Positions 140 through 59,875 of a stretch of DNA of 64,000 bases are shown one piece after another. The notes below the pieces were generated by a model, which did not search any database, was not told where the DNA came from, and saw nothing but the letters and a program-made list of their open reading frames with translations. Origin of the DNA: Pseudidiomarina terrestris. Its GTDB lineage: Bacteria > Pseudomonadota > Gammaproteobacteria > Enterobacterales > Alteromonadaceae. A program made the translations under genes and the position numbers. The DNA is taken from the NCBI RefSeq assembly GCF_030466405.1, contig NZ_JAGGJF010000001.1, positions 124,001 to 188,000 on the forward strand. Reading direction: 5' to 3'. Each line of letters opens with the position of its first letter. Within the stretch, counting starts at the first letter, position 1.

Positions 140-2031
140 TACCCAATGCGGCCAAATTTCAGGCCGACCCCTTGCTGGCAATCCTTCACGATGCGAAACG
201 CTGATTTCAGCTGCCGCCGTTTTAGTGTACTCAACTCATCAGGGTCCAGCGCATTCTTCGGTTGCGCGGTGCCCCACACCGCCAGCTGATGCTGCAAGCG
301 CAACTGCGTCAGAAATTGCCAGGCCTCGGCAAGCGCTTGGTTGTCTTTGCGATTAAGCAGCTTGCAGGATTCCAATAATTGCAACCGGGTCAGCGTGCGC
401 GGCTCGGTTAACCCTTCGTGCAAGCTATAGAGACGCACAATGTCATTGATAAGCGCAATCCCGTAGCGTTTGATATCCACCCAGTCACTGTCTTTACCTG
501 ACTCGGTGCCGCGGAACCTGTTAAATAAGCCTAATGGCACCTGTACGTTACTCTGTAAGCGGGCCAGATTGCCCAGGAAAAAGTCCGAGCGTCCCAGCTT
601 CGCGACATCCTCGCGGTAGGCTTGATAAAGACGTTTATTGCCGCGCACATTGCGGCTGTCGAAAAATATCTGGCAATACATCAGCGCTTTCGGCGTCGGA
701 CTCTCTGTCCAGCTCTGGAAACGTTCAAGCCAGCCAGCGCGAGTGCGCCGGCACTCGGGATTAGAGGCCATAATATTACCCGGGCATTTTGGCACACCAC
801 AGTCGGCCAGGCCCTCACAAACAAATTCTCCCAGCCCCGCAAACCAGTCTAACTGTGCTTGGTTCAAATCATTGGCCAGCAATAAGCCATTGTCCTGATC
901 AGAGCTTAAGGTCTGATCTTCCCGTCCTTGCGAGCCGAACGCCAGCCACACATACGAGGCCGGCGCGACACCGTGCTCCTGCTCGTAGAAATCAATCAAT
1001 TTGCGCGTCATGGTATCGGTAAGACTGGCCAGCAAGCGTCCCACCGCAGCAGCATCATTGACCCGCGCCGCAAAGCTGTGCATGTACTCCGGGATGTGAG
1101 CCGCCTCGGCAACCAATGCCTCGCGGTCGCCAACCTTATTCAAAGCACTGATGAGCATCACCGGTTCGCTCTTCTGCTCGCGCATCATGTCCGTATTGGT
1201 CAACATGCCGATAGGTTTGCCGTCCTCTTCAACCACCGGGAGGTGATGAATATTCTCCTGAGTCATCAATGCCAGCGCATCCACCAGACTCTGTTTCGCG
1301 CCGATCGTCGCAGGCGCCTGCGTCATCACCGCGTTGATATGAATGTCATAATTCAGCCCCTGGGCCACCACGCGATTGCGTAAATCGCGATCCGTCAGAA
1401 TACCCACCAGGCGTCCGTCATCGACCACCATAATCGACGACACCTTCTCCGCACGCATCGCCTGCGCCGCCTCCTGAATCGTCGCCGTACTACACAAACA
1501 CACCGCCGCCCTCTGCACCACCTCCCCAGCAAGGGCAGCCCTCTGTGGATAACTCGCCGAAGAAAGGGCTGCCCTTTCTGGATAAGTTTTGGGGTGGGGT
1601 TGGGGCTGGCTGAAGCTGGATTCGGTTAAGAACCGTTGTTCGTGTGCGCGAATGAAGTAATGTTCGAAGGCGCGGGAGGTCTGGCGCAAGTGATCAAAAT
1701 CGGCGGCGGCGACGATGTAAATGATACCGTCCTCGACGACCTCCAGTTGATTGACGATCGCACGGCCAGTCAACAATGAGGGGTAACCAAATAAGTCATG
1801 GGACTCGAGTCGCTCAATAAGCTGGCCATCGGGAGCAAGCAAATCAAAACCGCCTGAACGAACGATGTATAACGCGGGACTGTAGTTGGCGAACAGTTCA
1901 TCCACGTTATGTTCGTTGATATAGGCGGCTTTGATTTGCCCGGCTATCCACTGACGTTGGTCAGCATTGAGCTGATCAAACGGCGGACAGTCCAGTAAAA
2001 AACGATTTAATTCCGCGAAATCCGGCTGCAT
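139..2031 (-). CDS. cNMP-binding/CBS/DUF294 nucleotidyltransferase-like signalling protein with an in-frame REP insert
   Basis: The product is about 630 residues. In order it has an N-terminal cyclic-nucleotide-binding-like domain (about 15-120), a linker, two CBS domains (about 170-290), a DUF294 putative nucleotidyltransferase domain (about 330-460, with GSQGREDQTLSSDQD resembling the GlnD-type G-S...DxD active site) and a DUF294 C-terminal substrate-binding region. The start at 2031 is chosen for the AAAGGAG ribosome site just upstream; an upstream ATG at 2085 has no such support and lies in the terminator region. Residues about 150-168 are translated from an inserted repeat pair and read ERAALSS..QRAALAG; they fall in the linker before the CBS pair. 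The gene follows the symporter genes and overlaps the exonuclease start. A sensory role in acetate uptake is plausible but inferred. Confidence 0.88.
   Translation of the reverse strand: MQPDFAELNRFLLDCPPFDQLNADQRQWIAGQIKAAYINEHNVDELFANYSPALYIVRSGGFDLLAPDGQLIERLESHDLFGYPSLLTGRAIVNQLEVVEDGIIYIVAAADFDHLRQTSRAFEHYFIRAHEQRFLTESSFSQPQPHPKTYPERAALSSASYPQRAALAGEVVQRAAVCLCSTATIQEAAQAMRAEKVSSIMVVDDGRLVGILTDRDLRNRVVAQGLNYDIHINAVMTQAPATIGAKQSLVDALALMTQENIHHLPVVEEDGKPIGMLTNTDMMREQKSEPVMLISALNKVGDREALVAEAAHIPEYMHSFAARVNDAAAVGRLLASLTDTMTRKLIDFYEQEHGVAPASYVWLAFGSQGREDQTLSSDQDNGLLLANDLNQAQLDWFAGLGEFVCEGLADCGVPKCPGNIMASNPECRRTRAGWLERFQSWTESPTPKALMYCQIFFDSRNVRGNKRLYQAYREDVAKLGRSDFFLGNLARLQSNVQVPLGLFNRFRGTESGKDSDWVDIKRYGIALINDIVRLYSLHEGLTEPRTLTRLQLLESCKLLNRKDNQALAEAWQFLTQLRLQHQLAVWGTAQPKNALDPDELSTLKRRQLKSAFRIVKDCQQGVGLKFGRIG
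1531..1581. repeat. REP-like core pair inside the DUF294 gene
   Basis: Cores GGGCAGCCC at 1533-1541 and GGGCTGCCC at 1566-1574 are 33 bp apart in opposite orientation. A perfect DnaA box in reverse orientation (TGTGGATAA, 1544-1552) lies between them. The pair stays in frame with the host gene and encodes part of the interdomain linker. Confidence 0.9.
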
Positions 2032-25686: not shown

Positions 25687-26930
25687 TCCAGCGCTTCATT
25701 AAGCACGGATTCTTCAATGGTCAAGGCTGGCAAAAAACGGATGACATTGCCGTAGTAGCCGCAGGCCAGAAGAATAAGACCGTGCTCGGGCGCCAGTTTT
25801 ATGATGCGCTGAGTGAGTCCGGTATCCGGCTGCTCCGGATCGCCTTCGTGAACCAGTTCAATAGCTACCATTGCCCCCGTCTGCCGCACTTCTAAGATAC
25901 TTTCCGGATACTCTTTTTGTAACGCGCCCAAGCGCTGGTTAAATAGGGCGCCAATATGAGTTGCGCGCTGACAAAGGTCTTCTTGCACAATCACCTCAAG
26001 CACCGCCAACGCCGCCGCGCAGGCGACGGGCGAACCGCCATAAGTCCCGCCCAATCCGCCAGGCAAAGGCGCGTCCATGAGTTCAGCTTTGCCAACCACC
26101 GCTGCCAGCGGCAAGCCGCCAGCAATGCCCTTGGCCATGGTGATCAAGTCCGGCTCTACATCACTGTGTTCACAGCAGAACAACTTACCGGTGCGAGCAA
26201 AACCTGTTTGGATTTCGTCGGCGATCAGTACAATACCTGTGTCGTCACAAAGTTTCCGGAGGGCCTGCATAAAGCTCGCAGGAGCCGGATAAAAGCCGCC
26301 CTCGCCCTGCACCGGCTCAATGATGATCGCCGCCACATCACTCGGCGCGATGGCAGCCTTAAAAATATGCTGCAGCCCTTTTAATGCATCTTCCTCACTG
26401 ACGCCATGAGCCGCTACCGGAAACGGTGCGTGGTAGATGTCAGCAGGGAAAGGTCCAAACAGATGCTTGTAAGGTGCGACTTTACCGGTCAGACCCATGG
26501 TCATATTGGTGCGCCCGTGAAAACCGCCGGTAAAGGCAATGACACCACGCCGGCCCGTTGCAGCGCGGGCGATTTTTACACAGTTCTCGACGGCTTCCGC
26601 ACCTGTGGTGACAAACATGGCTTTCTTCACCGAAGGCCCGGGCGCTAAGCGCGTCAGCTTCTCCGCCAGTTCAACGGCTACTTCATAGGGATTGATCATC
26701 ACACAGCTATGCGAGAACTGTTCCAACTGCTGCTGCGCCGCCTTAACCACTTGAGGATGCGAATGACCGGTATTGCAGACCGCGATACCTGTGCCAAGAT
26801 CGATATATCTGTTGCCTTCCACATCCCAGACTTCAGCGTTTTTCGCCTTCGTCACATACACGGGGTACACATTGCCCTGACCACGGGCAAAAGCAGCGAG
26901 TTTGCGTTGTTGTAATTCCTGATTCGTCAT
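25647..26930 (-). CDS. gabT: 4-aminobutyrate aminotransferase
   Basis: The product is 427 residues, a class-III PLP aminotransferase that transfers the amino group of GABA to 2-oxoglutarate, giving succinate semialdehyde and glutamate. Visible motifs are [14 protein letters not shown], the PLP-region [14 protein letters not shown], and the Schiff-base lysine in [15 protein letters not shown] (near 267). The start overlaps the gabD stop by 4 bp (ATGA), so the order is gabD-gabT in one operon. The 3' end overlaps csrA by 40 bp in the opposite direction. Confidence 0.95.
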
Positions 26931-28408
26931 TGTCCACCTACACTTAAATACTTAATTGAAAGATAATCATCCAGCCCGTACTGCGAGCCTTCCCGGCCAT
27001 AGCCACTTTGCTTAATTCCACCGAAAGGCGCGGCAGCATTGGAGATCGCCGCATCATTCATGCCGACCATGCCAAACTTAAGCGCTTTCGCCACCCGCCA
27101 CAGCCGCCCGTGATCACGACTGTAGACATAGCTGGCCAGGCCAAACTCCGTATCATTTGCCAGCGCAATCGCCTGTCGCTCATCACTAAAGCGCAACAAC
27201 GGCGCCACCGGCCCAAAAATCTCCTCGCGCGCAATCGCCATCTCCGCCGTCACCCCCGTCAACACCACCCCCCCAAACCACGAAGAAAGGGCAGCCCTCC
27301 CCTTTTGTTCAGAGGGAGGGCTGCCCTTTCTTACAATGGTGGCGCCGGCGGCGACTGCGTTGTCGACGAGGGTGGCGACTTTGGCGGCGGCCTGGGGGTG
27401 AATGAGCGGTCCAAGTTCGAGTTGCTCGACCTGCTCCGCAAGGCGCTCAGCAAACTCGTCGTAGATGCTGTCGTGTACCAGAATACGATTAGCGCAGACG
27501 CAGGTTTGCCCAGCGTTGCGGAATTTCGCCAGCAGCACGCCTGCAATGGCGGCCTCAATATCAGCATCCTCAAACACTAGAAAAGGCGCGTTGCCGCCCA
27601 GCTCCAGTGATAACCGCTTCACCGTGCCACTGCACTGCGCAGCGAGCATCCGGCCAACTTTGGTTGAGCCGGTGAAAGTAAACTTTGCGACAGCGGGGTG
27701 TTGCGTCAGTACCTCACCAATCCCCTTCGCGTCGGTACCAACGATTAAGGCAAAGGCGGCGGCAGGAACTCCCGCGCGAATCGCCAATTGCTGCAATGCC
27801 AGAGCCGATAACGGCGTTTCCGCAGCCGGCTTTGCGACGATTGCACAGCCAGCAGCCAGCGCCGCAGCAGCCTTTCTCGCCAGCATCGCATTAGGAAAAT
27901 TCCAGGGCGTAATCGCAGCCACAACTCCCACCGGCTCTTTCACCACCACGATGTCCTTCGCCGGATTAGGCCCCGGAATCGTGGAGCCATACACACGCAC
28001 CGCCTCTTCTGCGAACCATTCAATATACGACGCACCATAGCCAATCTCGCCCTCTGCCTCGGCCATTGGCTTGCCCTGCTCCAAATGCAAAAGCTCCGCC
28101 AACACCTGCTTGTTCTGCATCAGTAGATCCGCCCACCGCCGCAAAATTCCCGCCCGCTCCCGCGCCGACCGTGCAGCCCACTTCTGCTGGCCATCCAGCG
28201 CCTGCGTTACAGCAATTTTGGCGTGCTCCGCTGACTGCTCACGTAACCAGGCGAAGCTGGACTGGTCCGCGGGATTTACCACCGCAAAATAGCTGGTGGC
28301 CTGCGCTCCGGCTGGCGGCTGCTCAGTGCGCACGGTCGCTGGTAACAGGTTATCGGCAATGACCTGCGCGACGCGGGCGGCTGCAGGTGTTGGCGGGTTA
28401 GATGTCAT
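26927..28408 (-). CDS. gabD: Succinate-semialdehyde dehydrogenase with a REP-derived segment
   Basis: The product is 493 residues of the aldehyde dehydrogenase family, oxidising succinate semialdehyde to succinate with NAD(P). The NAD-binding region ([22 protein letters not shown]), the catalytic Glu in LELGGNAPF and the catalytic Cys in GQTCVCANR are intact. Residues about 359-376 ([18 protein letters not shown]) come from an in-frame repeat pair and replace the usual GGxxxxGGxFFEPT loop before VLTGVT. A second oddity is a shortened region before GPLIHP, about a dozen residues fewer than typical GabD. The enzyme is probably still active, since both changes are in surface loops, but this is inference. 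Confidence 0.92.
27283..27332. repeat. REP-like core pair inside gabD
   Basis: GGGCAGCCC at 27289-27297 and GGGCTGCCC at 27318-27326 are 29 bp apart in opposite orientation, with outer ends AAGAAAGGGC and GCCCTTTCTT that are reverse complements. The element is in frame with gabD. Confidence 0.92.
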
Positions 28409-30854: not shown

Positions 30855-30875
30855 AAGCCAGCCAACTGGCGCTTT

Positions 30876-30970
30876 AGAAAGGGCAGCCCTCCATAGTAAT
30901 TTGACCGCAACAATGTAAGGGCTGCCCTCCCTATTTTTTTGTCTTGAAAATGTAAGGGCTGCCCTTTCTT
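30876..30970. repeat. REP-like triplet between the serine hydrolase and MFS genes
   Basis: Cores at 30881-30889 (GGGCAGCCC), 30919-30927 and 30956-30964 (both GGGCTGCCC), spaced 38 and 37 bp. Outer ends are AGAAAGGGC and GCCCTTTCTT. It fills most of the 137-bp intergenic gap. Confidence 0.93.
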
Positions 30971-35026: not shown

Positions 35027-37447
35027 ATGAAACATACAGACAACTTTAAAATTGCACCACTGGCGATAGCCATCAGTTCCGCGCTCTGGCTCAGTGCTCC
35101 GGTACTTGCCCAAGAGACGGCGAGCGACGAAGATAAAGCGCAGAAAGAGCCGGAACGCATTGTCGTTACGGCTACGCGGCGTCCGCAAACGGTCAACGAA
35201 ATTCCTTACAACATCTCGGTGTTGTCCGGTGAGGATCTGGAAGAACGCCTTATCATCAACTCAGTTGATGTGATGCGGGAAACGCCGGGGATCACCGTGG
35301 TCGATCGCGGCTACCGCAACTCCGGCGTGATCAACAACATCGTCATCCGCGGCATGAACGTTGACTCAGCTGGTAACGGTGACTTTGCCCTGAATGCGGT
35401 GCCAACTGTGAGTACTTACGTTAACGACACGCCGCTGTTCGCCAACTTCATCCTGAAAGACATCAACGCAGTAGAAATATTGCGTGGTCCACAAGGTACT
35501 TTGTACGGTTCTGGCTCCCTGGCAGGTACCGTGCGCTATACCCTGAACAAGCCTGATCTGTATCAGGGCTACGCACGGGTTGATGCACGCTTGAGCCAGA
35601 CGCAAGGCTCCGACGGTTTCAACCAAAACTACGATGTATTGGTCAATCAGCCGCTCACTGACACCCTGGCAGTGCGCGGTTTTTTTGGCCGCATCGATAA
35701 CGATGGCATCGTTGATTACGTCAATGTTTATCAACTGAATGACTCGGGCGCCCCGGTTGCTGAAGGCGGTGACATCGCCAGTGGCGACCCGCAATTTACA
35801 ACCATCGAAGATGCCGACACTGTGGATATCGATTACGGTCGCGTCAGCTTGCTCTGGCAGCCCTCCACCACCTTCTCGGCACTGCTCAGCCATCACTATC
35901 AGAGCGATGATATCGGTGGCCGTCGACAAGTCACGACCGGCACCAACTGGGTGGGTGGCACAGAACAGTCCTACGGTGAGTACGAGAATGGTGCGGTACA
36001 CCGCGAACCTTCCGAGCGCGATGTCAGCCTGACCTCGTTAGAGCTGGAGTGGGACCTGGGCTTTGCTTCGCTGTCGTCCACTACCTCTGACTATGACCAC
36101 GACGGTAGCTCGATCAGCGACAACACCGGCTTCTACGCACAAAACAACTGGTTTGCCTGGTTCTATGGCGGCAGCCCGCGTCCACTCGCTATCGCCGAAC
36201 GCTTCTATGAAGAATCCGGCTTTACTCAGGAACTGCGTTTAGTCTCTCAGGGCGAGAATACCTTTGATTGGATCCTTGGTGCGTTCTACATGGACAAAGA
36301 CACAGCTTCAGGTCAGGACAGCTTTATGCCTGGCTTTAGCGAGTGGGCCGAGGCCAGTGGCTTTGACGACACACTCGCCAGTTGGGGCGGCGTCCTTGGC
36401 GATCAGGATTTCCGCTACCGCGATCAGCGCAACATCCGCGACCTTTCCGTGTACGGGGAACTGACCTGGAATGTTACCGACCGCTTTAGCACCACCCTTG
36501 GCTTACGTCATTTTACCAATGACATCAGTAATGAGACCACCATCGAGCTGCCAATTTACCCGGGCCCGGCCAACGTTGACTCAGAATTTGATGACGACGG
36601 CACCCTGTTTAAATTTAACGCTTCGTACGATATTTCTGACGATATGATGTGGTACGCCACCATCTCTGAAGGTTATCGTCGCGGCGGTACCAGCGCCGTG
36701 CCTATCACTGGCGGCTTTGCTGAGAACCCTGAGTACCTGCGTTACAGCCCGGACAGTGTGGTCAACCTGGAAACCGGTATTAAAGGTTCCGTGAACCGTC
36801 ACAATTACTCGGTGACCGTGTTCCGCATGAACTGGGACGACCCGCAACTGAACGTGGCCACACCGAACTGGGGCTTCTATGCTGCCGTCAACGGTGAGAA
36901 AGCGCGATCAGAAGGTCTGGAACTCGAACTCAAAGGTTTCCTGACCGACAGCATCAAGTACAACGTCGGCTATGCTTACGTCAACGCTGAACTTGGCCGC
37001 GACCTGGTAGTACCTTCCGGCACGGCAAGTTCGCCTTCCAGCTACGTTTACGCAAAAGCCGGTGAACAGCTGCCATCGATGGCGGAGCATACCTTTAGCG
37101 GTGGCCTGAACCATTCGATGGACCTGGCTTCCGGCATGTACCTGGTGACCAACTTCAGTACCTACTTCCAGTCCGACTCACGCAATGCGCTGGGCAATAA
37201 TCCGAAGTTTGACATTGACCTGCCACGCTTCTTTATCACCAATGCCAGCACCACCTTGCACGCCGATGAGTGGAAGGTTAGTCTGTTCGTTAAGAATATC
37301 TTCAACGAAAAAGGGGTTACTGGCGTGTTATCTGAAGCCTACATGGGTACCGACCCGGCTGAAAACTTCTACGGCAATAGCTCGAAGCAGTACATCAGCC
37401 AGCCACGCACGGTCGGCGTACGATTCAGCTATGAATTCGGCTGGTAA
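35027..37447 (+). CDS. TonB-dependent outer-membrane receptor
   Basis: The product is 806 residues. A signal peptide (about 1-29, after PVLAQ) is followed by a TonB-box-like segment RIVVTATRRPQTV (about 43-55), a plug (about 55-175, with VEILRGPQGTLYGSGSLAGTVRY, the usual plug motif) and a barrel ending in VGVRFSYEFGW. CAGGGGA ribosome site. A TPR-sulfotransferase gene overlaps its last 17 bp. This receptor/TPR-sulfotransferase pairing is common in Alteromonadales and sphingomonads. Substrate unknown. Confidence 0.93.
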   Translation: MKHTDNFKIAPLAIAISSALWLSAPVLAQETASDEDKAQKEPERIVVTATRRPQTVNEIPYNISVLSGEDLEERLIINSVDVMRETPGITVVDRGYRNSGVINNIVIRGMNVDSAGNGDFALNAVPTVSTYVNDTPLFANFILKDINAVEILRGPQGTLYGSGSLAGTVRYTLNKPDLYQGYARVDARLSQTQGSDGFNQNYDVLVNQPLTDTLAVRGFFGRIDNDGIVDYVNVYQLNDSGAPVAEGGDIASGDPQFTTIEDADTVDIDYGRVSLLWQPSTTFSALLSHHYQSDDIGGRRQVTTGTNWVGGTEQSYGEYENGAVHREPSERDVSLTSLELEWDLGFASLSSTTSDYDHDGSSISDNTGFYAQNNWFAWFYGGSPRPLAIAERFYEESGFTQELRLVSQGENTFDWILGAFYMDKDTASGQDSFMPGFSEWAEASGFDDTLASWGGVLGDQDFRYRDQRNIRDLSVYGELTWNVTDRFSTTLGLRHFTNDISNETTIELPIYPGPANVDSEFDDDGTLFKFNASYDISDDMMWYATISEGYRRGGTSAVPITGGFAENPEYLRYSPDSVVNLETGIKGSVNRHNYSVTVFRMNWDDPQLNVATPNWGFYAAVNGEKARSEGLELELKGFLTDSIKYNVGYAYVNAELGRDLVVPSGTASSPSSYVYAKAGEQLPSMAEHTFSGGLNHSMDLASGMYLVTNFSTYFQSDSRNALGNNPKFDIDLPRFFITNASTTLHADEWKVSLFVKNIFNEKGVTGVLSEAYMGTDPAENFYGNSSKQYISQPRTVGVRFSYEFGW

Positions 37448-38771
37448 GTCGAAGGCTGACGCCGCGCTTCGGGCCACCGAGCGCGGCGATTATACCCAGG
37501 CCTTAAACCTGTATGCCGAGGCGGTCCACATGACGCCCCGGCATCCGGTTCTGCTCTACAACTACGCCAGCCTCGCCCGCATCACCGGCGACCTGGACCT
37601 GGCCTTAACCCTGCTCAATCAAGTCATCGACCTCAACCCCGACGACACCGCCGCCTGGCACATGCGCAGCAACCTCCGCCGCTGGACCCCAGAGCACAAC
37701 CACATCGCCGCCCTCACCAAGAAAGGGCAGCCCTTACATTCTGACGACACCTCCGCAAGCAAGGGCAGCCCTAAACCGCTCAGCCCCAAGCAGCAGGTCG
37801 AGCTAAACTACGCGCTGGCGAAAGAACACGAAGACTGCGGCAACTACGCCGAAGCCAGGCAGCACCTGCTCTGCGCGGCCGCGCTGCGCCGCCAGCACCT
37901 CAACTACAACATCCAGGACGACCTCGACACCATCGCCGCCCTCAGCAAGAAAGGGCAGCCCTTAGATTTTAAAGAGGCTTCCAAAAGGAAGGGCTGCCCT
38001 TCCTCGAAGTGTGTTTTTGTTTTGGGGTTGCCGCGGGTGGGGTCGACGCTGCTGGAGCGCATGCTCAGTTGCGATAAGCGGGTGGTCGCCGCAGGCGAGC
38101 TGCCATTTTTCCCGCAACTGCTGGGCCGTGCGCTGCAAAGCGCCTTTATCAAGCAGAACGGCCCGCACGCCAGGCCGAAGAGCAAAACCGAACTGGTCAG
38201 TTACGTCGACAACGTCGACTGGCAGAAGTTAGGCGCAGACTACCTGGCGCAGTTGCCCGAAGGCGAGTTTGTTATCGACAAACTGCCCCTTAACTTCCTG
38301 AATATCGGTTTAATTCAGCGCGCGCTGCCCCATGCGAAAGTGATCTACATGCACCGCGACCAGCAAGATCATGAACTCGCCCTGATGAAGCACTTGTTCA
38401 ACCAAGCTTACCCATGGTCCTATTCGCTCGCCGAAATTCGCCAGTATTATGAAGCCGCAACCGCGCTCTGCGAACGTGCCTGCGCACAGTCGCCCAAGAC
38501 GATTCACAAAGTCAGCTATGAAGACTTAGTTGGCACACCAGAACAGACATTAAAAGAAGTGTCAGATTACTGTGGACTTAACTGGCAGCAAAAGGATCTA
38601 CGCCAGGCTCTGCAGTTTGCATCGCACAACCAAAAGGCCAGTACCACCGGCAGCGCCAGTCAGGTGCGGAGTCAGCTGCACCAGCGCTCGGTCGGGCTCG
38701 CCAAGAAGTACGGCTGGCCTGCCACAGACCTCAGCGCCACGCAGCTTAGTCCGCCATTCGCGACCAGATAA
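37431..38771 (+). CDS. TPR-repeat sulfotransferase-family protein with two in-frame REP inserts
   Basis: The product is 446 residues from the ATG at 37431, inside the end of the TonB gene; a longer frame from 37185 lies wholly in the receptor gene and is rejected. TPR helices (about 5-95 and 118-170) precede a sulfotransferase domain (about 194-420) with the PAPS-binding loop VLGLPRVGSTLLERM (about 198-212) and the 3'-phosphate region VIYMHRD. Two repeat-derived segments are translated: residues about 97-115 (KKGQPLHSDDTSASKGSP) and about 173-192 (KKGQPLDFKEASKRKGCPSS). Both follow an IAAL motif. They lie in linkers, so the fold may survive. The 3' end overlaps the convergent dehydratase gene by 26 bp. 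Confidence 0.87.
   Translation: MNSAGKSKADAALRATERGDYTQALNLYAEAVHMTPRHPVLLYNYASLARITGDLDLALTLLNQVIDLNPDDTAAWHMRSNLRRWTPEHNHIAALTKKGQPLHSDDTSASKGSPKPLSPKQQVELNYALAKEHEDCGNYAEARQHLLCAAALRRQHLNYNIQDDLDTIAALSKKGQPLDFKEASKRKGCPSSKCVFVLGLPRVGSTLLERMLSCDKRVVAAGELPFFPQLLGRALQSAFIKQNGPHARPKSKTELVSYVDNVDWQKLGADYLAQLPEGEFVIDKLPLNFLNIGLIQRALPHAKVIYMHRDQQDHELALMKHLFNQAYPWSYSLAEIRQYYEAATALCERACAQSPKTIHKVSYEDLVGTPEQTLKEVSDYCGLNWQQKDLRQALQFASHNQKASTTGSASQVRSQLHQRSVGLAKKYGWPATDLSATQLSPPFATR
37718..37773. repeat. REP-like core pair inside the TPR-sulfotransferase gene (first insert)
   Basis: Two cores in the same orientation, GGGCAGCCC at 37725-37733 and 37763-37771, exactly 38 bp apart, in frame with the gene. 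Confidence 0.92.
37947..38003. repeat. REP-like core pair inside the TPR-sulfotransferase gene (second insert)
   Basis: GGGCAGCCC at 37953-37961 and GGGCTGCCC at 37991-37999, 38 bp apart, in frame. The left flank (about 20 bp) is almost identical to that of the first insert. Confidence 0.92.
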
Positions 38772-40850: not shown

Positions 40851-41210
40851 ATGTTCGTTGCTCTCTCAATTTGCTCAGCCTTAGCGCTTGTTATTGCTAG
40901 CTTTAGTGGTAACCCGATGGTCTGGTTGCTTACTATCGGAGCGATTGTATGTAGCGCGGTTATTGGTTTTGGTCACAAAAACTTTATAAATGCCTCACTC
41001 GTGAGTGGCCCATTTTTCATTTTGTCGGGCTTTGCTTCACTGCATGTTTCCCTGCTCGGCATGAGTGACGTCACGCTCTACGAGAACCTGCCGGTATTGG
41101 TCAGTGCCTTCTCCCTCATTTTAGTGGCGACACTTAGCGTTTGTATTAGCATGGTCGAGCGGGCATCACAGCAACATGAAACTATGCCTGCCAGCGAGTT
41201 TAAGCGTTAA
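40851..41210 (+). CDS. Small membrane protein of unknown function
   Basis: The product is 119 residues with four hydrophobic segments (about 2-18, 22-42, 50-72 and 80-104) and a polar C-terminal tail. GGTGAGG lies before the ATG. Its stop overlaps the ATG of the beta-CASP nuclease gene (TAATG), so the two are probably translationally coupled. I do not recognise the family. Confidence 0.7.
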   Translation: MFVALSICSALALVIASFSGNPMVWLLTIGAIVCSAVIGFGHKNFINASLVSGPFFILSGFASLHVSLLGMSDVTLYENLPVLVSAFSLILVATLSVCISMVERASQQHETMPASEFKR

Positions 41211-42715
41211 TGACAGCCCAGCCGCAGGTGAAGCATCACGGTGCTTTCGCGGGTGTGACCGGGTCCTGCCACGAACTTTTTCTGGGCCCCGCGGACTCGG
41301 TTCTCATCGATTGCGGCTTATTTCAGGGTGCTGAAACCTCCGGTACAGGCGCAACGTCAGCTTCCTCTGAAATCGACTTTTCGCTTGCCTCGGTACGTGG
41401 GTTAGTCATCACTCACACTCATATTGACCACGTCGGCCGCATCCCTTATTTGCTGATGGCTGGGTTTAACGGGCCCATCTTTTGTACCTCGGCAACGGCT
41501 CATCTACTACCCCTGGTTATCGAAGATGCCCTGAAAATCGGCTTAACCCGTGACCGCGACCTCATTGCCGGCGTGCTGTCGCGGCTGCGGCGCATGCTGA
41601 TCCCTTTTGACTACGACGAGTGGCAGCCCCTTGCCTGTGATAACTCGGGTCATGCTGTGCGCGTAAGGTTTCGCCAGGCCGGACATATCTTAGGTTCAGC
41701 CTATGTTGAGTTTGAATGGGGCGATTCTGGTGGGGCTTTGCGTGCTGTTGGGGGTGATCGGGGTGATCGGGGTGATCGGGGTGTTGGGGGTGTTGGGGCT
41801 GTTGCGGCGGACCAGCCGCTCAAGGTGGCGTCGCTGTATCCGCTTGCCGAGGGCTATCGAGTGGTATTTTCGGGTGATCTTGGCTGTCGCAATACGCCAT
41901 TACTTCCGGATCCGCAGCCGCTGGAGCGTGCCGACCTGCTATTTTTAGAAAGCACTTATGGCGACCGTTTGCACGAATCACGCCAGGACCGCTCGGTGCG
42001 CCTCAAAACCGTGATTGAGCGCTGCGTTAGTGATGGTGGGGCGGTGCTCATCCCGGCATTCAGCATTGGCCGCACGCAGGAGTTGCTCTATGAAATCGAA
42101 GATCTCATTGCCAGCAATGCCGGCTTCTGGCCGACCATCACCGTCATTCTCGACTCGCCAATGGCGGCAGAGTTTACTGCACTTTACCAGCAGCTCGCTC
42201 ATTTGTGGGACCAAGAGGCACTGCAGCGACGCGCCGCAGGCCGCAATCCACTTGATTTTTCACGTCTGCACACGGTCGCAAGCCACGCCGATCACGAACA
42301 CATCGTCAACTTTTTACGCACCTCCGGCGAACCCTGCATTGTCATTGCCGCCAGCGGAATGTGTGCCGGCGGCCGCATGGTCAACTATCTGAAAGCACTC
42401 TTACCAGACCCGCGCACCGACGTCCTTTTCGTCGGTTACCAAGCCAGCGGCACCCCCGGACGCGCCATTCAGGAATACGGCCCCAACGGTGGTTATGTTG
42501 AACTTGATGACGAGCGCATCACCATCCGCGCCGGCATACACACCCTCGGCGGCTACTCCGCCCACGCCGACCAGGCCGAACTCATCGACTTCGTTCTCGC
42601 CGCCTCACCCCCCGTCGGCGAAGTTCGCCTCATCCACGGCGACAGCGGCGCCCGCCGCGCCCTCGCCACCAAACTCCAAGAAAGGGCAGCCCTTACATTT
42701 CATAGCCCAACTTAG
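41210..42715 (+). CDS. Metallo-beta-lactamase/beta-CASP RNase-like protein whose C-terminus is repeat-encoded
   Basis: The product is 501 residues. The metallo-beta-lactamase motif HTHIDH (residues 69-74) and further metal ligands, the beta-CASP insert (ILIPAFSIGRTQELLYE) and the RNA-specificity C-terminal domain (GASGMCAGGRM-like, GYSAHADQ) place it with bacterial CPSF73-like RNases. Between residues about 182 and 198 a slipped 9-bp repeat (GGTGATCGG) encodes GDRGDRGDRGVGGVG. The last dozen residues (ERAALTFHSPT) and the stop codon come from the start of the downstream repeat cluster, so the native C-terminus was probably replaced. Confidence 0.88.
   Translation: MTAQPQVKHHGAFAGVTGSCHELFLGPADSVLIDCGLFQGAETSGTGATSASSEIDFSLASVRGLVITHTHIDHVGRIPYLLMAGFNGPIFCTSATAHLLPLVIEDALKIGLTRDRDLIAGVLSRLRRMLIPFDYDEWQPLACDNSGHAVRVRFRQAGHILGSAYVEFEWGDSGGALRAVGGDRGDRGDRGVGGVGAVAADQPLKVASLYPLAEGYRVVFSGDLGCRNTPLLPDPQPLERADLLFLESTYGDRLHESRQDRSVRLKTVIERCVSDGGAVLIPAFSIGRTQELLYEIEDLIASNAGFWPTITVILDSPMAAEFTALYQQLAHLWDQEALQRRAAGRNPLDFSRLHTVASHADHEHIVNFLRTSGEPCIVIAASGMCAGGRMVNYLKALLPDPRTDVLFVGYQASGTPGRAIQEYGPNGGYVELDDERITIRAGIHTLGGYSAHADQAELIDFVLAASPPVGEVRLIHGDSGARRALATKLQERAALTFHSPT
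41750..41805. repeat. 9-bp tandem repeat in the beta-CASP gene
   Basis: GGTGATCGG is repeated three times and followed by degenerate GGTGTTGGG copies, coding for a Gly/Asp/Arg/Val stretch. Such a tract can change length by slippage without a frameshift. Confidence 0.8.
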
Positions 42716-42775
42716 AAGGAAGGGCTGCCCTTACATTTCATAGCCCCACTTACAAGGAAGGGCTGCCCTCCCTTA
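42678..42775. repeat. REP-like triplet on the 3' side of the RAYT gene
   Basis: Cores at 42684-42692 (GGGCAGCCC), 42722-42730 and 42760-42768 (GGGCTGCCC), spaced 38 and 38 bp. Units two and three are an almost perfect 38-bp tandem copy. It supplies the last codons and stop of the beta-CASP gene and abuts the transposase stop codon. Confidence 0.95.
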
Positions 42776-43465
42776 TCATTTATCAGTTTTTATTGTTGGT
42801 AATTGGTAACCCAGTTTGGTACTCATTCTTTCCCGGAAGGCATCACTTCCATAAGCAGACTGCTTTATTTGCGCACGCCTGATCTCACCTCTAAGAGCAT
42901 CAAAAACGGCGCTCGTGACATCGGTCTGGTTGACCAGGTTTCGATAGACTTTCTGGCACTCTTGTAAATTCCGGCCCATTCGAAGGAAAGAGAAGTGCGG
43001 AACGATGAATGAAGACTGCAGTCCCTCAGCATTGTGACGATAAGATCCCCAGTGCCATTGCCTTGGATGTGCGACCAGCCCAGCCTTTACCGGATTGAGT
43101 TCAATATAGCGGTAGATAGTTAGCGCGTAGTCGTCATCATCTACTAAGGCTGAAAAATAGCGCTTTTCGTAAAGGGTCCCAGTGCGCTTATACTTGTTGT
43201 TGTAAAACCTAGTGTAAGCGCCACTTATGCACATCATCATCCGGCCTGTGGTTTTGCGTTCTGCCGGCGTCACCAGTAGGTGAATGTGATTCGGCATAAA
43301 CATCCAGGCGTGCACAGCAATACCATATTTATCGGAGTACTTAATCAGCAATCCCGCAAACCGCTGGTAGTCTTCGGTCTCACGAAAAATGAGCTGGCGA
43401 TTGTTCCCACGCTGAGTGATATGCAGTGCGACCCCAGGTACATCATTCCTTCTATCGTTAGGCAT
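42776..43465 (-). CDS. REP-associated tyrosine transposase (RAYT, Y1_Tnp family)
   Basis: The product is 229 residues with the Y1/HUH transposase fold: HITQRGNNRQLIF at the N-terminus, the HUH metal motif His60-Ile-His62 in MPNHIHLLVTP, and the RAYT-typical YRYIELNPVKAGLV segment (about 118-131), which holds the likely catalytic tyrosine (Tyr118 or Tyr120). RAYTs nick and join single-stranded DNA at short palindromic REP sequences and are thought to spread them. Here the gene is single-copy in the window and bounded on both sides by triplets of the GGGC(A/T)GCCC repeat, the layout expected of a RAYT with its own REPs. AGGAGG precedes the start. It looks intact. Confidence 0.95.
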   Translation of the reverse strand: MPNDRRNDVPGVALHITQRGNNRQLIFRETEDYQRFAGLLIKYSDKYGIAVHAWMFMPNHIHLLVTPAERKTTGRMMMCISGAYTRFYNNKYKRTGTLYEKRYFSALVDDDDYALTIYRYIELNPVKAGLVAHPRQWHWGSYRHNAEGLQSSFIVPHFSFLRMGRNLQECQKVYRNLVNQTDVTSAVFDALRGEIRRAQIKQSAYGSDAFRERMSTKLGYQLPTIKTDK

Positions 43466-43500
43466 AACAACCTCCTTGTTGTTTGGAGGTTAATTATAGC

Positions 43501-43596
43501 AGCAAGGGCAGCCCTCGCTGCTTGAGCAGAAACCAAAAAGGAAGGGCAGCCCTCCCTTTTCAAAATCTCTTTAAAACGGAAGGGCTGCCCTTTCTG
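43501..43596. repeat. REP-like triplet on the 5' side of the RAYT gene
   Basis: Cores at 43506-43514 and 43544-43552 (GGGCAGCCC) and 43582-43590 (GGGCTGCCC), spaced 38 and 38 bp. It ends 5 bp before the stop of the Coa1-like gene. Confidence 0.95.
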
Positions 43597-43600
43597 GAGT

Positions 43601-43990
43601 TTAAAGCGAGTCGTTCGGAGCGATGATTTGAAGGCGCTCGTGGGCGCCATCGATATCCACGACTACGCGTTGCAACTGCCACTCCCCTGTATCTCTAATC
43701 GCATAAGCAAAAACTGTACCTTCCCCCTTGGGCCCAGAGATACTGTACTGTAGCTCCGCGTTGCCGCCAGGCCCACTGATGTTTACGTTACCGAGTACTA
43801 GAAAGCCGGGTTCAATTGGCTCACCAAGCAGCACTTGAACCGCCGCATGCTTAGAAACAGCGGCGAGCGACAAGTCATAGGCTTCGCCTTTCACCAGCGA
43901 CATCACGAAATAGACGAACAAAACAAAAACCGCCATGAGGGCCGCAGCGATCCCCAATCCAATAATCAGCCACTTAATATCTCTTTTCAC
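43601..43990 (-). CDS. Coa1-like (cytochrome oxidase assembly factor 1 family) membrane protein
   Basis: The product is 129 residues with one N-terminal membrane helix (about 7-30) and a small extracytoplasmic domain (LSLAAVSKHAAVQVLLGEPIEPGFLVLGNVNISG) resembling the bacterial Coa1-family proteins. The start codon is GTG at 43990 with AAAGGTG seven bases upstream. No cytochrome oxidase gene is nearby, so a respiratory role is not supported by context. The start abuts an array of 11-bp repeats. Confidence 0.7.
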   Translation of the reverse strand: MKRDIKWLIIGLGIAAALMAVFVLFVYFVMSLVKGEAYDLSLAAVSKHAAVQVLLGEPIEPGFLVLGNVNISGPGGNAELQYSISGPKGEGTVFAYAIRDTGEWQLQRVVVDIDGAHERLQIIAPNDSL

Positions 43991-44274: not shown

Positions 44275-44370
44275 AAAAAAGGGCTGCCCTTGCTCCTGAT
44301 GACATCCTTAAATCGTTAGGGCTGCCCTTCCTTTTCCAGGCGCGGCAAAATGAAAGGGCTGCCCTTTCTT
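44275..44370. repeat. REP-like triplet upstream of the ECF sigma gene
   Basis: Cores GGGCTGCCC at 44281-44289, 44319-44327 and 44356-44364, spaced 38 and 37 bp, all in the same orientation. It ends 11 bp before the proposed -35 element of the sigma gene. Confidence 0.93.
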
Positions 44371-49144: not shown

Positions 49145-49240
49145 AAGCAAGGGCAGCCCTTACATTTTAGGAGTGTCTACGGAAGCAAGGGCAGCCCTTG
49201 CTCCTGAGGTGGTCTTTACAATATAAGGGCTGCCCTCCCT
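49145..49240. repeat. REP-like triplet after the truncated HupE/UreJ gene
   Basis: Cores at 49151-49159 and 49189-49197 (GGGCAGCCC) and 49227-49235 (GGGCTGCCC), spaced 38 and 38 bp. Confidence 0.95.
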
Positions 49241-49314
49241 GATTTCCGTGAATTGTTAGTGCTCAGATTGCGCAACCTCTGGTAAGCTAGGCGAGCACAA
49301 CTTAAGGAAGCACC

Positions 49315-49865: not shown

Positions 49866-49962
49866 TCAGGAGGGGCAGCCCTCCCTCCTGAAAAGCCTCA
49901 AAACTGGAAGGGCAGCCCTTGCTTCCGAAGGCACCTCGAGACAGGAAGGGCTGCCCTCCCTT
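49866..49962. repeat. REP-like triplet before the zinc-ribbon gene
   Basis: Cores at 49873-49881 and 49910-49918 (GGGCAGCCC) and 49948-49956 (GGGCTGCCC), spaced 37 and 38 bp. Confidence 0.95.
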
Positions 49963-51201: not shown

Positions 51202-51300
51202 GAAGAAAGGGCAGCCCTAGCTTTTCAAAGCGCCGTTAAATCATAAGGGCAGCCCTTCCTCCCAGTGGCACCTTCAAATTGTAAGGGCTGCCCTTTCTGT
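51202..51300. repeat. REP-like triplet between the ZIP and HNH nuclease genes
   Basis: Cores at 51209-51217 and 51247-51255 (GGGCAGCCC) and 51285-51293 (GGGCTGCCC), spaced 38 and 38 bp. It occupies the divergent promoter region. Confidence 0.95.
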
Positions 51301-51364: not shown

Positions 51365-52108
51365 ATGAAATGCTTCCGAGGGGTGCGCACGGCCATGAAG
51401 ACTGCAGCGGTAGTTTTCGGTATCTGCTGTGCCGTGCTGGTTGCGACCTTGCCGGCGCAAGCTGTTTTAGCCGCAACGGTTAAAATGAGTAAGTCTAAAA
51501 TCTGCCACGACTGGCGCAGCCCCTACTACGAGCGCATAAAAAGATTCACTAGCTACCCATCACTTGACGCTTGCCTTGCTGATGGAGGCCGCTTGCCCAA
51601 GACTAACCGCGGCAATAAACCAGACGAAGCGAACCGTGGATACTCCCGTAGCGCATACATCCATTGGACTGACGCCGACCGGGACTGTTTGAACACGCGG
51701 CATGAGCTATTAACCGAGCTATCAACCATTAAAGTGAGCACTACTCCAGATGGTTGCCGTGTGCTGCGTGGCCGTTGGAATGACCCGTATTCGGGAGAAA
51801 TTATCTTCGATTCGAAAGACATCGATATCGACCACCTCGTGCCTCTGGCCTGGGCCTGGCACCATGGCGCTGCCAATTGGCCTGCCCAACGACGGAAAGA
51901 GTTCGCCAATGACCCTGTCAACCTGTTCGCAGTAAAACTCGAACTTAACCGCAGCAAAGGCGCTCACAGCCCGCTGGAATGGCTGCCGCCCAACCAGAAG
52001 TTCCATTGCCAGTACGTAACCCGCTATTTACGGGTGATGCTGATCTACGACTTCACCAGCAATTCACGCGACGAGATCCGCCAACTGCGCGATAAGATTT
52101 GCGACTAG
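51365..52108 (+). CDS. Secreted HNH (DUF1524-type) nuclease
   Basis: The product is 247 residues. A signal peptide (about 10-37) precedes a cysteine-containing domain and an HNH motif in DIDIDHLVPLAWAWHHGA (about 159-176), with the NPVNLFAVKLELNRSKG-like segment that follows in DUF1524/GmrSD-type nucleases (here DPVNLFAV). It probably degrades extracellular or periplasmic DNA. Starts at 51365 (AGGT upstream) and 51395 (GAGGGG upstream, giving a tighter signal peptide) are both possible; the longer is listed. No toxin or immunity partner is visible. Confidence 0.87.
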   Translation: MKCFRGVRTAMKTAAVVFGICCAVLVATLPAQAVLAATVKMSKSKICHDWRSPYYERIKRFTSYPSLDACLADGGRLPKTNRGNKPDEANRGYSRSAYIHWTDADRDCLNTRHELLTELSTIKVSTTPDGCRVLRGRWNDPYSGEIIFDSKDIDIDHLVPLAWAWHHGAANWPAQRRKEFANDPVNLFAVKLELNRSKGAHSPLEWLPPNQKFHCQYVTRYLRVMLIYDFTSNSRDEIRQLRDKICD

Positions 52109-52148: not shown

Positions 52149-52215
52149 AGTTATCCACAGAGGGCAGCCCTTTCTCCTGATAGCACCCTGATCCACAAAG
52201 GGCTGCCCTTTCTTA
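52149..52215. repeat. REP-like core pair with DnaA box, after the HNH gene
   Basis: Cores GGGCAGCCC at 52162-52170 and GGGCTGCCC at 52200-52208, 38 bp apart. TTATCCACA (52151-52159) lies two bases before the first core; a near match, GATCCACA, precedes the second. Confidence 0.93.
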
Positions 52216-53050: not shown

Positions 53051-53206
53051 TTACCCACAAAGGGCAGCCCTTTCTGCTGGCATCAAAACAAGTTATCCAC
53101 AAAGGGCAGCCCTTTCTGCTGGCGTCAGAAGCTGCGGAAGTTATCCACAGAGGGCAGCCCTTCCTTCTTAAAGTGCCTTTACAATGTAAGGGCTGCCCTT
53201 TCTTGG
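53051..53206. repeat. REP-like cluster of four cores with adjacent DnaA boxes
   Basis: GGGCAGCCC at 53062-53070, 53104-53112 and 53152-53160, GGGCTGCCC at 53190-53198; spacing 42, 48 and 38 bp. DnaA-box sequences precede the first three cores: TTACCCACA (53051), TTATCCACA (53093) and TTATCCACA (53141). It fills the space between two convergent genes. Confidence 0.95.
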
Positions 53207-59098: not shown

Positions 59099-59875
59099 AT
59101 GATCACAGCCTCCAGCCTCAAAGAACTCGAAGCCATCGCCCGCCAAGCCGGTGATGCGATCATGGCCATTTATAACGCCGACGACTTTGCCGAGCGCATC
59201 GCCGTGCAGGCCAAAGGTGACGACAGCCCGCTGACCCAGGCCGATCTGGCGGCGCATGACATCATCAAAGCCGAACTCACCAAACTGTCCGATAGCGAGC
59301 TTGCCGCCCTGCCGCAGCTCTCCGAAGAATCCGCCGCCGTGCCCTGGCAAGAGCGCCAGCAATGGCAAAGCTACTGGCTCATCGACCCCCTCGATGGCAC
59401 CAAAGAATTCATCAAGCGCAACGGCGAATTCACCGTCAACATCGCACTTATCCACAAAGGGCAGCCCTTCGCTGGGGTAGTCTATGCGCCCGCTACCGAC
59501 ACCATGTACAGCGCTGCCGAAGCTCTAGGCGCATGCAAAAATGGCAAGCCGATACGCGCACGTCAGGATGCAGACGCCGAAACCTTAAAAATCGTCGGCT
59601 CACGTTCGCACGCCTCACCCGGCTTGCAGGACTACCTCGACCAGCTCGACAAGCCTTACGAAATGGTGCCCATGGGCAGCTCATTGAAACTGTGCCTGGT
59701 CGCCGAGAGCAAAGCCCATTTGTACCCGCGCTTAGGTCCCACCAGCGAGTGGGATACTGCCGCAGCGCATGCAGTAGCGGTGGCTGCAGGCGCCAGCGTC
59801 ACCACCACCGACGGTGAACCACTGCGCTACAATCAAAAAGCGTCGTTACTGAACCCATATTTCATAGTGAAGTAG
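59099..59875 (+). CDS. cysQ: 3'(2'),5'-bisphosphate nucleotidase CysQ
   Basis: The product is 258 residues of the inositol-monophosphatase superfamily. It removes the 3'-phosphate of PAP released when PAPS is used. Metal-binding motifs are intact: SEES near 79 and LIDPLDGTKEFIKRNGEFTVNIA (about 98-120), then GSSLK, WDTAAAHA. AAAGGATA precedes the ATG. It belongs with cysD and cysNC downstream. One REP core with its DnaA-box flank is embedded at 59448-59475 and codes for IHKGQPFAG, where other CysQ proteins have a same-length, similar strand. The TAG stop lies in the arm of an inverted-repeat element. Confidence 0.95.
   Translation: MITASSLKELEAIARQAGDAIMAIYNADDFAERIAVQAKGDDSPLTQADLAAHDIIKAELTKLSDSELAALPQLSEESAAVPWQERQQWQSYWLIDPLDGTKEFIKRNGEFTVNIALIHKGQPFAGVVYAPATDTMYSAAEALGACKNGKPIRARQDADAETLKIVGSRSHASPGLQDYLDQLDKPYEMVPMGSSLKLCLVAESKAHLYPRLGPTSEWDTAAAHAVAVAAGASVTTTDGEPLRYNQKASLLNPYFIVK
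59448..59475. repeat. Single REP-like core with DnaA box inside cysQ
   Basis: TTATCCACA (59448-59456) is followed two bases later by GGGCAGCCC (59459-59467). The 22-bp block 59448-59469 matches the repeat at 53093-53114 exactly. No extra length is added to the protein. Confidence 0.8.

What the first reader, a model, noticed from the sequence alone, without database searches (positions are those of the whole stretch)
42678..43596. RAYT transposase bracketed by two triplets of its probable REP family, with 36 cores in the window
A Y1/HUH RAYT gene is flanked by a GGGC(A/T)GCCC triplet on each side, and the same core occurs 36 times in 14 places here. The outer ends of most clusters are AAGAAAGGGC and its reverse complement. 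RAYT-with-REP pairs are known; this core and density look like an active or recently active family. The link between enzyme and repeats is by position, not shown directly.
Basis: partly seen in the sequence, partly recalled or inferred. Interest (0 to 1): 0.75.

Follow-up and report, generated by a model that had tools for sequence, protein, structure and literature searches.

The report
Hairpin-repeat halo around RAYT gene
A single-copy transposase-like gene sits in the middle of a dense cloud of small DNA hairpins that it probably makes, and relatives of the gene in other bacteria sit in similar clouds, which suggests that these hairpins are copied mainly close to the gene rather than across the whole chromosome.

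Summary
In detail: 36 GGGC(A/T)GCCC cores in 14 places (chance about 0.8), with a triplet on each side of a 229-aa Y1/HUH gene, the genome's only Y1_Tnp match. 'Most outer ends AAGAAAGGGC' is overstated (10 of 28 exact). The unexpected part is geography: 19 of the genome's 34 regularly spaced core pairs lie within 12 kb of the gene, 33 of 34 within 180 kb. A RAYT-centred concentration appears in 10 of 12 genomes counted, including another family where 19 of 19 copies lie within 14 kb. Published cases (Thauera, Marinomonas) were read as following arrival of the gene; here related genes sit in two recurrent seats, and the occupied seat is the richer in 6 of 6 genomes. Against this: the vacant seat is also rich, and G003 has 74 cores and no RAYT; my trees do not settle whether it lost the gene. 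Best reading: a RAYT family whose repeats spread locally and change in concert. A permissive region is the main rival. No biochemistry was done.

The parts
42776..43465 (-). RAYT: 229-aa Y1/HUH transposase-like protein, HIH motif, Y---NP motif (YIELNP), NPVKAG; only Y1_Tnp match of the genome
42678..42774 (.). REP triplet downstream of the RAYT (cores 42684, 42722, 42760); its first unit codes the last residues of the beta-CASP ORF
43500..43596 (.). REP triplet upstream of the RAYT (cores 43506, 43544, 43582)
1527..1580 (.). REP pair inside ORF 139-2085; carries a TTATCCACA box on the minus strand
27283..27332 (.). REP pair (inverted, folds as one long hairpin), inside ORF 26927-28408
30875..30970 (.). 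REP triplet, intergenic
37719..37777 (.). REP pair inside ORF 37185-38771
37947..38005 (.). REP pair inside ORF 37185-38771
44275..44370 (.). REP triplet between the Coa1-like gene and an ECF sigma factor gene
49145..49241 (.). REP triplet; site S1, alignable place in G004 with a different stem
49867..49962 (.). REP triplet
51203..51299 (.). REP triplet; site S7, alignable place in G003
52156..52214 (.). REP pair beside TTATCCACA; site S5, alignable place in G003
53056..53204 (.). REP quadruplet, two units preceded by TTATCCACA; site S6, alignable place in G003
59459..59467 (.). single core inside the inositol-monophosphatase-like gene, coding LIHKGQPFAG; conserved coding sequence, possibly not a REP insertion
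41210..42715 (+). beta-CASP metallo-hydrolase gene beside the RAYT (seat A); a relative of at least 54% over its main stretch in 16 of 17 genus genomes searched
43601..43990 (-). Coa1-like gene on the other side of the RAYT; in G003 it lies directly beside the beta-CASP gene with one core between and no RAYT

Best explanation
This is a long-resident RAYT (HUH/Y1 enzyme) with its own family of triloop-hairpin REPs. New REP copies are made mainly near the gene, and the local population is kept fairly uniform in sequence. Proposed mechanism: the enzyme binds REP hairpins on transiently single-stranded DNA, nicks at the AG-containing 5' foot, and joins the unit to a nearby target, often beside an existing REP. 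That would give pairs and triplets at a 38-bp period. Because the enzyme comes from one gene and acts close to it, donors and targets lie close by, so a halo forms. Repeated REP-to-REP exchange would replace old stems by the current type. Shown by comparison: the association, the concentration in 10 genomes, the two seats, and stems that differ by species. Inferred: binding, nicking, strand transfer, that nearness to the gene is the cause, that the gene is inherited vertically, and that stems are replaced in place.
For: Own genome: of 34 genome-wide pairs of cores with a 25-35 bp gap, 19 lie at C6:154.9-177.2 kb around the RAYT at 166.8-167.5 kb, 33 at C6:154.9-346.2 kb, 1 elsewhere (pairs with other gaps are not in this count). 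Places per 10 kb: 3-5 within 10 kb of the gene, 0.27 at 400-740 kb. Cores within 20 kb of the RAYT, k of all in the genome: G000 34/114, G004 23/74, G016 13/44, G012 22/78, G002 13/36, G025 31/72, G013 37/116, G049 19/19, G011 10/22, G017 10/23, 19- to 100-fold over uniform (positions). Seat A, within 4 kb of the 3' end of the beta-CASP gene: G000, G004 (next to it), G002, G012, G016. Seat B, between orthologues of G000 genes 230165 and 263508: G025, G013, G011, G017, G014. Within 15 kb of the occupied seat against the other seat: 31 v 14, 20 v 10, 31 v 18, 10 v 4, 10 v 6, 34 v 10, the occupied one richer in 6 of 6. Stems: the -1/+1 pair is A-T in 49 of 54 (G000) and 18 of 18 (G016) but G-C in 49 of 51 (G025); -2/+2 is G-C in 16 of 18 (G016) and A-T in 37 of 51 (G025). 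Stems also differ at alignable sites S1, S5, S6, S7. Five window places fold better than shuffles, z -3.4 to -7.8.
Against: Both seats are rich in repeats in the six genomes compared. G003 has no RAYT match but 74 cores, 16 of them at C1:35-47 kb beside its beta-CASP gene. Its tree position is unsettled: FastTree on five genes groups it with G004, IQ-TREE on the same genes with G025 and does not reject a place outside the seat-A group; a ten-gene quartet with G025 rejects grouping with G000 or G004, a six-gene quartet with G016 favours G004, one with G002 is ambiguous. So loss is not shown. The RAYT tree rejects the best tree of six neighbour genes (AU 0.002), although those genes do not reject the RAYT tree (AU 0.27), so vertical descent is allowed, not proven. 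Within seat A the RAYT is up to 3.7 kb from the beta-CASP gene and turned round in G016. Repeat patches without a RAYT exist: G000 C6:289-346 kb, G012 C1 and C5, G013 C12 and C14, G011 C8, G017 C11; contig order is unknown. G053 and G039 had 3 copies each of the chosen 11-mer, 2 and 1 beside the RAYT. The binomial values treat cores of one array as independent. G003 and G004 stems are mixed (G-C 10 and A-C 7 of 17; G-T 17 and G-C 14 of 33). No clean empty site of a single REP. Kinship leaves perhaps 4-5 independent cases.
Confidence: 0.55

Rival explanations
1. Regional hot spot: the chromosomal neighbourhood of the two seats tolerates or favours both RAYT and REP insertion, so the two co-occur without one causing the other's position.
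For: Both seats carry repeats in the six genomes compared. G003 has its densest patch near the beta-CASP gene with no RAYT. By eye, hairpins of other types lie beside or inside the beta-CASP gene in 5 of the 17 loci printed (G011, G014, G017, G019, G022), and G022 has no P0001-like RAYT.
Against: The richer seat is the one that holds the gene in 6 of 6 genomes. G049, another family, shows no gene of this neighbourhood in the fetched 40 kb but 19 of 19 copies within 14 kb of its RAYT. GC skew is negative in 18 of 18 10-kb bins around the RAYT in G000 (G004, G025 and G012 have one bin each of the other sign), so an origin or terminus at the gene is unlikely.
Confidence: 0.27
2. Recent arrival: the RAYT came in lately and its REPs have not had time to spread (close to the reading given for Thauera and Marinomonas).
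For: Published reading of two similar cases (passages of PMC2817692; section 10 of PMC8266576). G049 copies are nearly identical, which fits a recent burst there. The RAYT tree rejects the best neighbour-gene tree (AU 0.002).
Against: Same neighbourhood in five species with RAYTs 65-72% identical to P0001; REP places alignable between species; two RAYT clades with shared seats; neighbour genes do not reject the RAYT tree (AU 0.27).
Confidence: 0.1
3. The hairpins are host elements (terminators, mRNA stabilisers) kept by selection in this region, and the RAYT is incidental.
For: Stem pairing is kept with change on both sides between species and some places are alignable.
Against: Six of 14 places lie in or overlap ORFs. 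Repeat type differs with the RAYT lineage and, G003 apart, copy number is higher in genomes with the close RAYT. A host role for some copies is not excluded.
Confidence: 0.07
4. Coincidence of a frequent 9-mer.
For: Distant cores mostly look like chance: of 36 further stretches fetched, 28 hold one core without a fully paired five-base flank.
Against: 36 against 0.83 expected in the window; regular 38-bp spacing; inverted outer units.
Confidence: 0.01

Closest known systems
RAYT/REP systems (REPtrons) of group 2 and 3, e.g. E. coli TnpA-REP
   Same: Single-copy HUH/Y1 gene with Y---NP and NP(V/L)(K/R)xG motifs, flanked by its own hairpin family in pairs and clusters; the one solved-structure hit is TnpA-REP 4er8
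   Different: No GT(A/G)G tetranucleotide at the hairpin foot; the foot is A(G)NRR. The REPs are centred on the gene, while most REPs are said to be distributed genome-wide (passage of PMC8266576)
TIRYT / TIRtron (Di Nocera 2013; subclass 2.1 in the 2018 HuH phylogenomics paper)
   Same: The protein's relatives in G039, G047, G049 and G053 have GGGGTCAG repeats in their flanks, which fit the TIRYT motif GGGGWSAS
   Different: The window repeat itself does not fit GGGGWSAS; no C-terminal DnaA-like or HTH domain was found; and REP-like hairpins are present, whereas none were reported near subclass 2.1 genes (section read)
REPINs (Bertels and Rainey 2011)
   Same: Outer units inverted, folding into one long hairpin
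   Different: Triplets are common here and the spacing is 38 bp; in P. fluorescens SBW25 triplets are rarer than expected (passages)
Thauera and Marinomonas RAYTs with REPs near the gene
   Same: Local concentration of REPs at the RAYT (passages; section)
   Different: There it was read as following acquisition or recent arrival; here the concentration recurs across related species with the gene in two recurrent seats

Membership tests
RAYT (REP-associated tyrosine transposase) | HUH motif and Y---NP motif | tested here: met
   PNHIHLL and YIELNP in P0001; motif definition from passages of PMC6006769
RAYT (REP-associated tyrosine transposase) | NP(L/V)(R/K)xG beside the tyrosine | tested here: met
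   NPVKAG; definition from a passage of PMC2817692
RAYT (REP-associated tyrosine transposase) | Curated family model above cut-off | tested here: inconclusive
   NF047646 75 bits, cut-off 80
RAYT (REP-associated tyrosine transposase) | Single copy, flanked by its own REP family that is repeated elsewhere in the genome | tested here: met
RAYT (REP-associated tyrosine transposase) | Binds and cleaves its REP on single-stranded DNA | not testable with these tools
   needs purified protein
Canonical REP (GTAG type) | GT(A/G)G at the foot of the hairpin | tested here: not met
   position frequencies in the mapped regions of seven genomes show A(G)NRR instead
TIRYT / subclass 2.1 | GGGGWSAS motif in flanking repeats | tested here: not met
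   window repeat AAGGGCAGCCC does not fit; flanks of relatives in G039, G047, G049, G053 do
TIRYT / subclass 2.1 | C-terminal HTH or DnaA-like domain | tested here: not met
   only Y1_Tnp found at E up to 1 in P0001 and its G004 and G025 relatives
REPIN | Two inverted REPs forming one unit | tested here: met
   11 of 13 multi-core places begin with centre A and end with centre T; folds. That the pair moves as a unit was not tested

The most novel reading that the evidence does not exclude
The RAYT works as a local editor: it copies hairpins only within tens of kilobases of its own gene and continually rewrites existing ones to the current type, so a chromosome carries a positional record of where the gene sits now and where it sat before. 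The halo would be a lasting property of this family, not a sign of recent arrival.
Probability: 0.38. Interest if true: 0.76.

Novelty: new variant of a known kind. Interest (0 to 1): 0.58.

Why it matters
How REPs spread is poorly understood (start of the abstract of PMC8266576); most known families are genome-wide, which hides any link between donor, enzyme and target. A family in which copies stay near the gene, with two alternative seats of the gene among close relatives and at least one relative with repeats but no gene, makes local copying, the role of nearness to the gene, and concerted change of the hairpins directly testable by comparison and by experiment.

Tried and rejected
Chance: rejected. 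Recent arrival: disfavoured, with the tree result partly the other way. Alien island: G000 region genes have reciprocal best matches in relatives (54 in G004, 49 in G002, 37 in G003, 25 in G025, 22 in G016, 14 in G012); around the G049 RAYT several of the ten genes scanned look housekeeping, e.g. glutathione synthetase and peptidase M3. Some of the ten genes in the G025 quartet may be paralogues; I did not check each. Broken RAYT left in G003: none found in 80 kb, no candidate genome-wide. Clean empty site of a REP: S9 not informative, S8 and S2-S4 only partly alignable. Typing the protein to a published subclass: not settled, no reference members at hand; Bertels 2017 was not held. Former RAYT seat as the cause of the G012 C1 patch: only 1 shared gene found, not supported. 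Rows dropped: G047 gave no readable RAYT frame in the tree script and is not in the tree; G053 and G039 (3 copies each) are not in the table; genus RAYT carriers G014, G015 and G019 were not counted for their own repeat; loci L019-L021 were not examined for repeats. For G002 only cores in the first 100 kb of the RAYT contig were used as near positions. For G000, 100 of 114 core places were listed (the RAYT contig whole); for G013, 100 of 116 (the RAYT contig whole).
Full report
What is there. The window holds 36 GGGC(A/T)GCCC cores where shuffles give 0.83, in 14 places, mostly pairs and triplets at 37-38 bp spacing. The gene at 42776-43465 (minus strand, 229 aa) matches Pfam Y1_Tnp with 54.7 bits, is the only match to that family in the genome, and has HIH, YIELNP and NPVKAG motifs. 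Its one solved-structure hit is TnpA-REP 4er8, E 0.00045. NCBIfam's REP-associated tyrosine transposase model scores 75 against a cut-off of 80. A triplet lies on each side, as reported. The claim that most cluster ends read AAGAAAGGGC is too strong: 5 of 14 left ends and 5 of 14 right ends are exact.

Anatomy of the repeat. Read as GGGCAGCCC, the unit can form a hairpin with a CAG triloop and a stem that continues into the flank; a 21-base consensus folds with a 9-bp stem (7 of 200 shuffles fold as well). Before the core the bases are A(G)NRR, not the GT(A/G)G of canonical REPs (definition from passages of PMC6006769). In 11 of 13 multi-core places the first core has centre A and the last centre T, so the outer units are inverted; in the five arrays folded, units pair with each other. 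Six of 14 places lie in or overlap ORFs of at least 120 aa; three of these ORFs were aligned to orthologues, and the REP-coded residues fall in variable stretches.

Where the copies are. Genome-wide there are 114 GGGCAGCCC matches, but distant single ones mostly lack a paired flank: 28 of 36 further stretches fetched. A cleaner count is of paired cores with a 25-35 bp gap: 34 in the genome, 19 of them at C6:154.9-177.2 kb around the RAYT, 33 at C6:154.9-346.2 kb, 1 elsewhere. By places, density is 3-5 per 10 kb within 10 kb of the gene, 2 at 10-20 kb, 0 at 20-40 kb, 0.1-0.8 between 40 and 180 kb, 0.1-0.3 beyond. The fall is not smooth: there is the gap at 20-40 kb and a second patch at 120-180 kb.

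Same pattern elsewhere. Of 26 genomes of the genus searched (G000 included), 12 have a relative of the protein, six of them (G000, G004, G002, G016, G012, G025) at 55-100% identity. I counted a repeat genome-wide in 12 genomes that have a RAYT. Copies within 20 kb of it: G000 34/114, G004 23/74, G016 13/44, G012 22/78, G002 13/36, G025 31/72, G013 37/116, G011 10/22, G017 10/23, and G049 of another family 19/19. G053 and G039 had 3 copies each, with 2 and 1 beside the RAYT. The fold excess over uniform is 19 to 100 in the ten. Binomial values are tiny but overstate, because cores in one array are not independent and the genomes are kin.

RAYT presence and copy number. Genus genomes with a RAYT at least 55% identical hold 36-114 cores. 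The 14 with no match hold 5, 74, 6, 28, 16, 7, 8, 3, 15, 20, 22, 5, 5 and 11; the 74 is G003. The six with a distant RAYT hold 5-23. In G003 the Coa1-like gene lies directly beside the beta-CASP gene, with one core between and no trace of the RAYT in 80 kb, and 16 cores lie at C1:35-47 kb. I first read G003 as a loss nested among carriers, from a five-gene FastTree tree. Further tests do not bear this out: IQ-TREE on the same genes puts G003 with G025 and does not reject a place outside; a ten-gene quartet with G025 rejects G003 with G000 or G004, a six-gene quartet with G016 favours G003 with G004, and one with G002 is ambiguous. Loss remains likely on general grounds (repeats of this type without an enzyme), but it is not shown, and G003 counts partly against the reading.

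Two seats. In G000, G004, G002, G016 and G012 the RAYT lies within 4 kb of the 3' end of the beta-CASP gene: next to it in G000 and G004, 1.5-3.7 kb away in the others, and turned round in G016. In G025, G013, G011, G017 and G014 it lies between orthologues of G000 genes 230165-231613 and 263508-264335, with up to about 3 kb on one side. In the RAYT tree G025 is sister to the first group (support 0.962), and G013, G014, G011, G017 and G019 form the next clade (0.957; the seat of G019 was not mapped), so the second seat is probably ancestral. Copies within 15 kb of the occupied seat against the other seat: 31 v 14, 20 v 10, 31 v 18, 10 v 4, 10 v 6, 34 v 10. The peak goes with the gene, but the vacant seat is never empty, which leaves room for a regional cause. 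The RAYT alignment rejects the best tree of six neighbour genes (AU 0.002); those genes do not reject the RAYT tree (AU 0.27) and are themselves poorly resolved. Vertical descent is therefore allowed but not proven.

Concerted change. The stem pair next to the core is A-T in 49 of 54 units mapped in G000, 18 of 18 in G016 and 22 of 32 in G012; it is G-C in 49 of 51 in G025 and 10 of 15 in G002; G-T or G-C in 31 of 33 in G004; and G-C in 10, A-C in 7 of 17 in G003. The next pair is G-C in 16 of 18 in G016 and A-T in 37 of 51 in G025. At sites S1 (G000/G004), S5, S6 and S7 (G000/G003) the flanks align and the arrays sit at the same place, yet the stems differ between the species. Of nine sites tried, these four are clear, S2-S4 partial, S8 and S9 not informative.

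Other lineages of the same enzyme. Near more distant RAYTs there are different repeats: GGTCCGGACC-type in G011 and G017, AGCTGGGGCCGC in G014, AAGGGGCAGGCAC in G013, GGGGTCAG-type in G049, G053, G039 and G047. Near the Rugamonas and Duganella relatives (L022, L023) nothing stood out. GGGGTCAG fits the TIRYT motif GGGGWSAS (section read in PMC3733652). In G049, 6 of 19 copies directly follow a partial copy ending near GGGGTCA, as if new units join beside old ones; this is inference.

What is known. RAYTs with flanking REPs, REPtrons, REPINs and TIRYTs are known. Long vertical inheritance of RAYTs, and more REPINs in E. coli genomes that have the gene, are in print (passages of PMC8049555). Concentration near the gene is in print for Thauera (passage of PMC2817692) and Marinomonas (section 10 of PMC8266576), read as following acquisition or recent arrival; the latter paper says most REPs are distributed genome-wide (passage). 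The searches (listings and abstract starts) and the passages opened showed no paper that reports a halo recurring across related species, a halo that goes with the seat of the gene, or stems that change at fixed places; only open-licence papers were searched, and Bertels 2017 was not held.

Mechanism and verdict. Best reading: an HUH enzyme that copies and exchanges its hairpins on single-stranded DNA mostly near its own gene. The association and geography are shown; binding, nicking, transfer and the reason for nearness are inferred from the enzyme family. The main rival is a permissive region that hosts both. I file it as a new variant of the RAYT/REP kind: defining enzyme motifs met, own repeat family met, GTAG foot not met, TIRYT features not met in the window itself.

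Noticed in passing
G000 C6 84-268 kb (window and neighbours); G003:C1 35.8-37.9 kb: TTATCCACA, which fits the DnaA-box consensus quoted, occurs 9 times in 184 kb of G000 and 7 of the 9 lie within 6 bp of a core; in G003 4 of 4 do; in the other mapped regions 3 of 11 do. One instance in each of G000 and G003 is conserved coding sequence of the inositol-monophosphatase-like gene, so the tag may have been picked up from there and spread. Unexplained.
   Followed up: partly
L016 (G013 RAYT gene) and G013:C7 about 228.2 kb: The open frame of the G013 RAYT runs on to 357 aa with repeated KGQAL peptides that its own repeat would code, as if REPs had inserted into the gene's 3' end.
   Followed up: partly
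L070, L072, L073, L074, L075 (flank or inside of the beta-CASP gene): Hairpins of other types sit beside or inside the beta-CASP gene in G019, G011, G022, G017 and G014 (by eye); G022 has no P0001-like RAYT.
   Followed up: partly
window 51365-52108: ORF with a GmrSD_C (restriction endonuclease C-terminal) domain between two REP arrays.
   Followed up: no
G012 C1:449-489 kb and C5:112-133 kb; G013 C14:60-93 kb: Secondary repeat patches away from the RAYT contig; they may be contig neighbours of the RAYT region or former seats.
   Followed up: no
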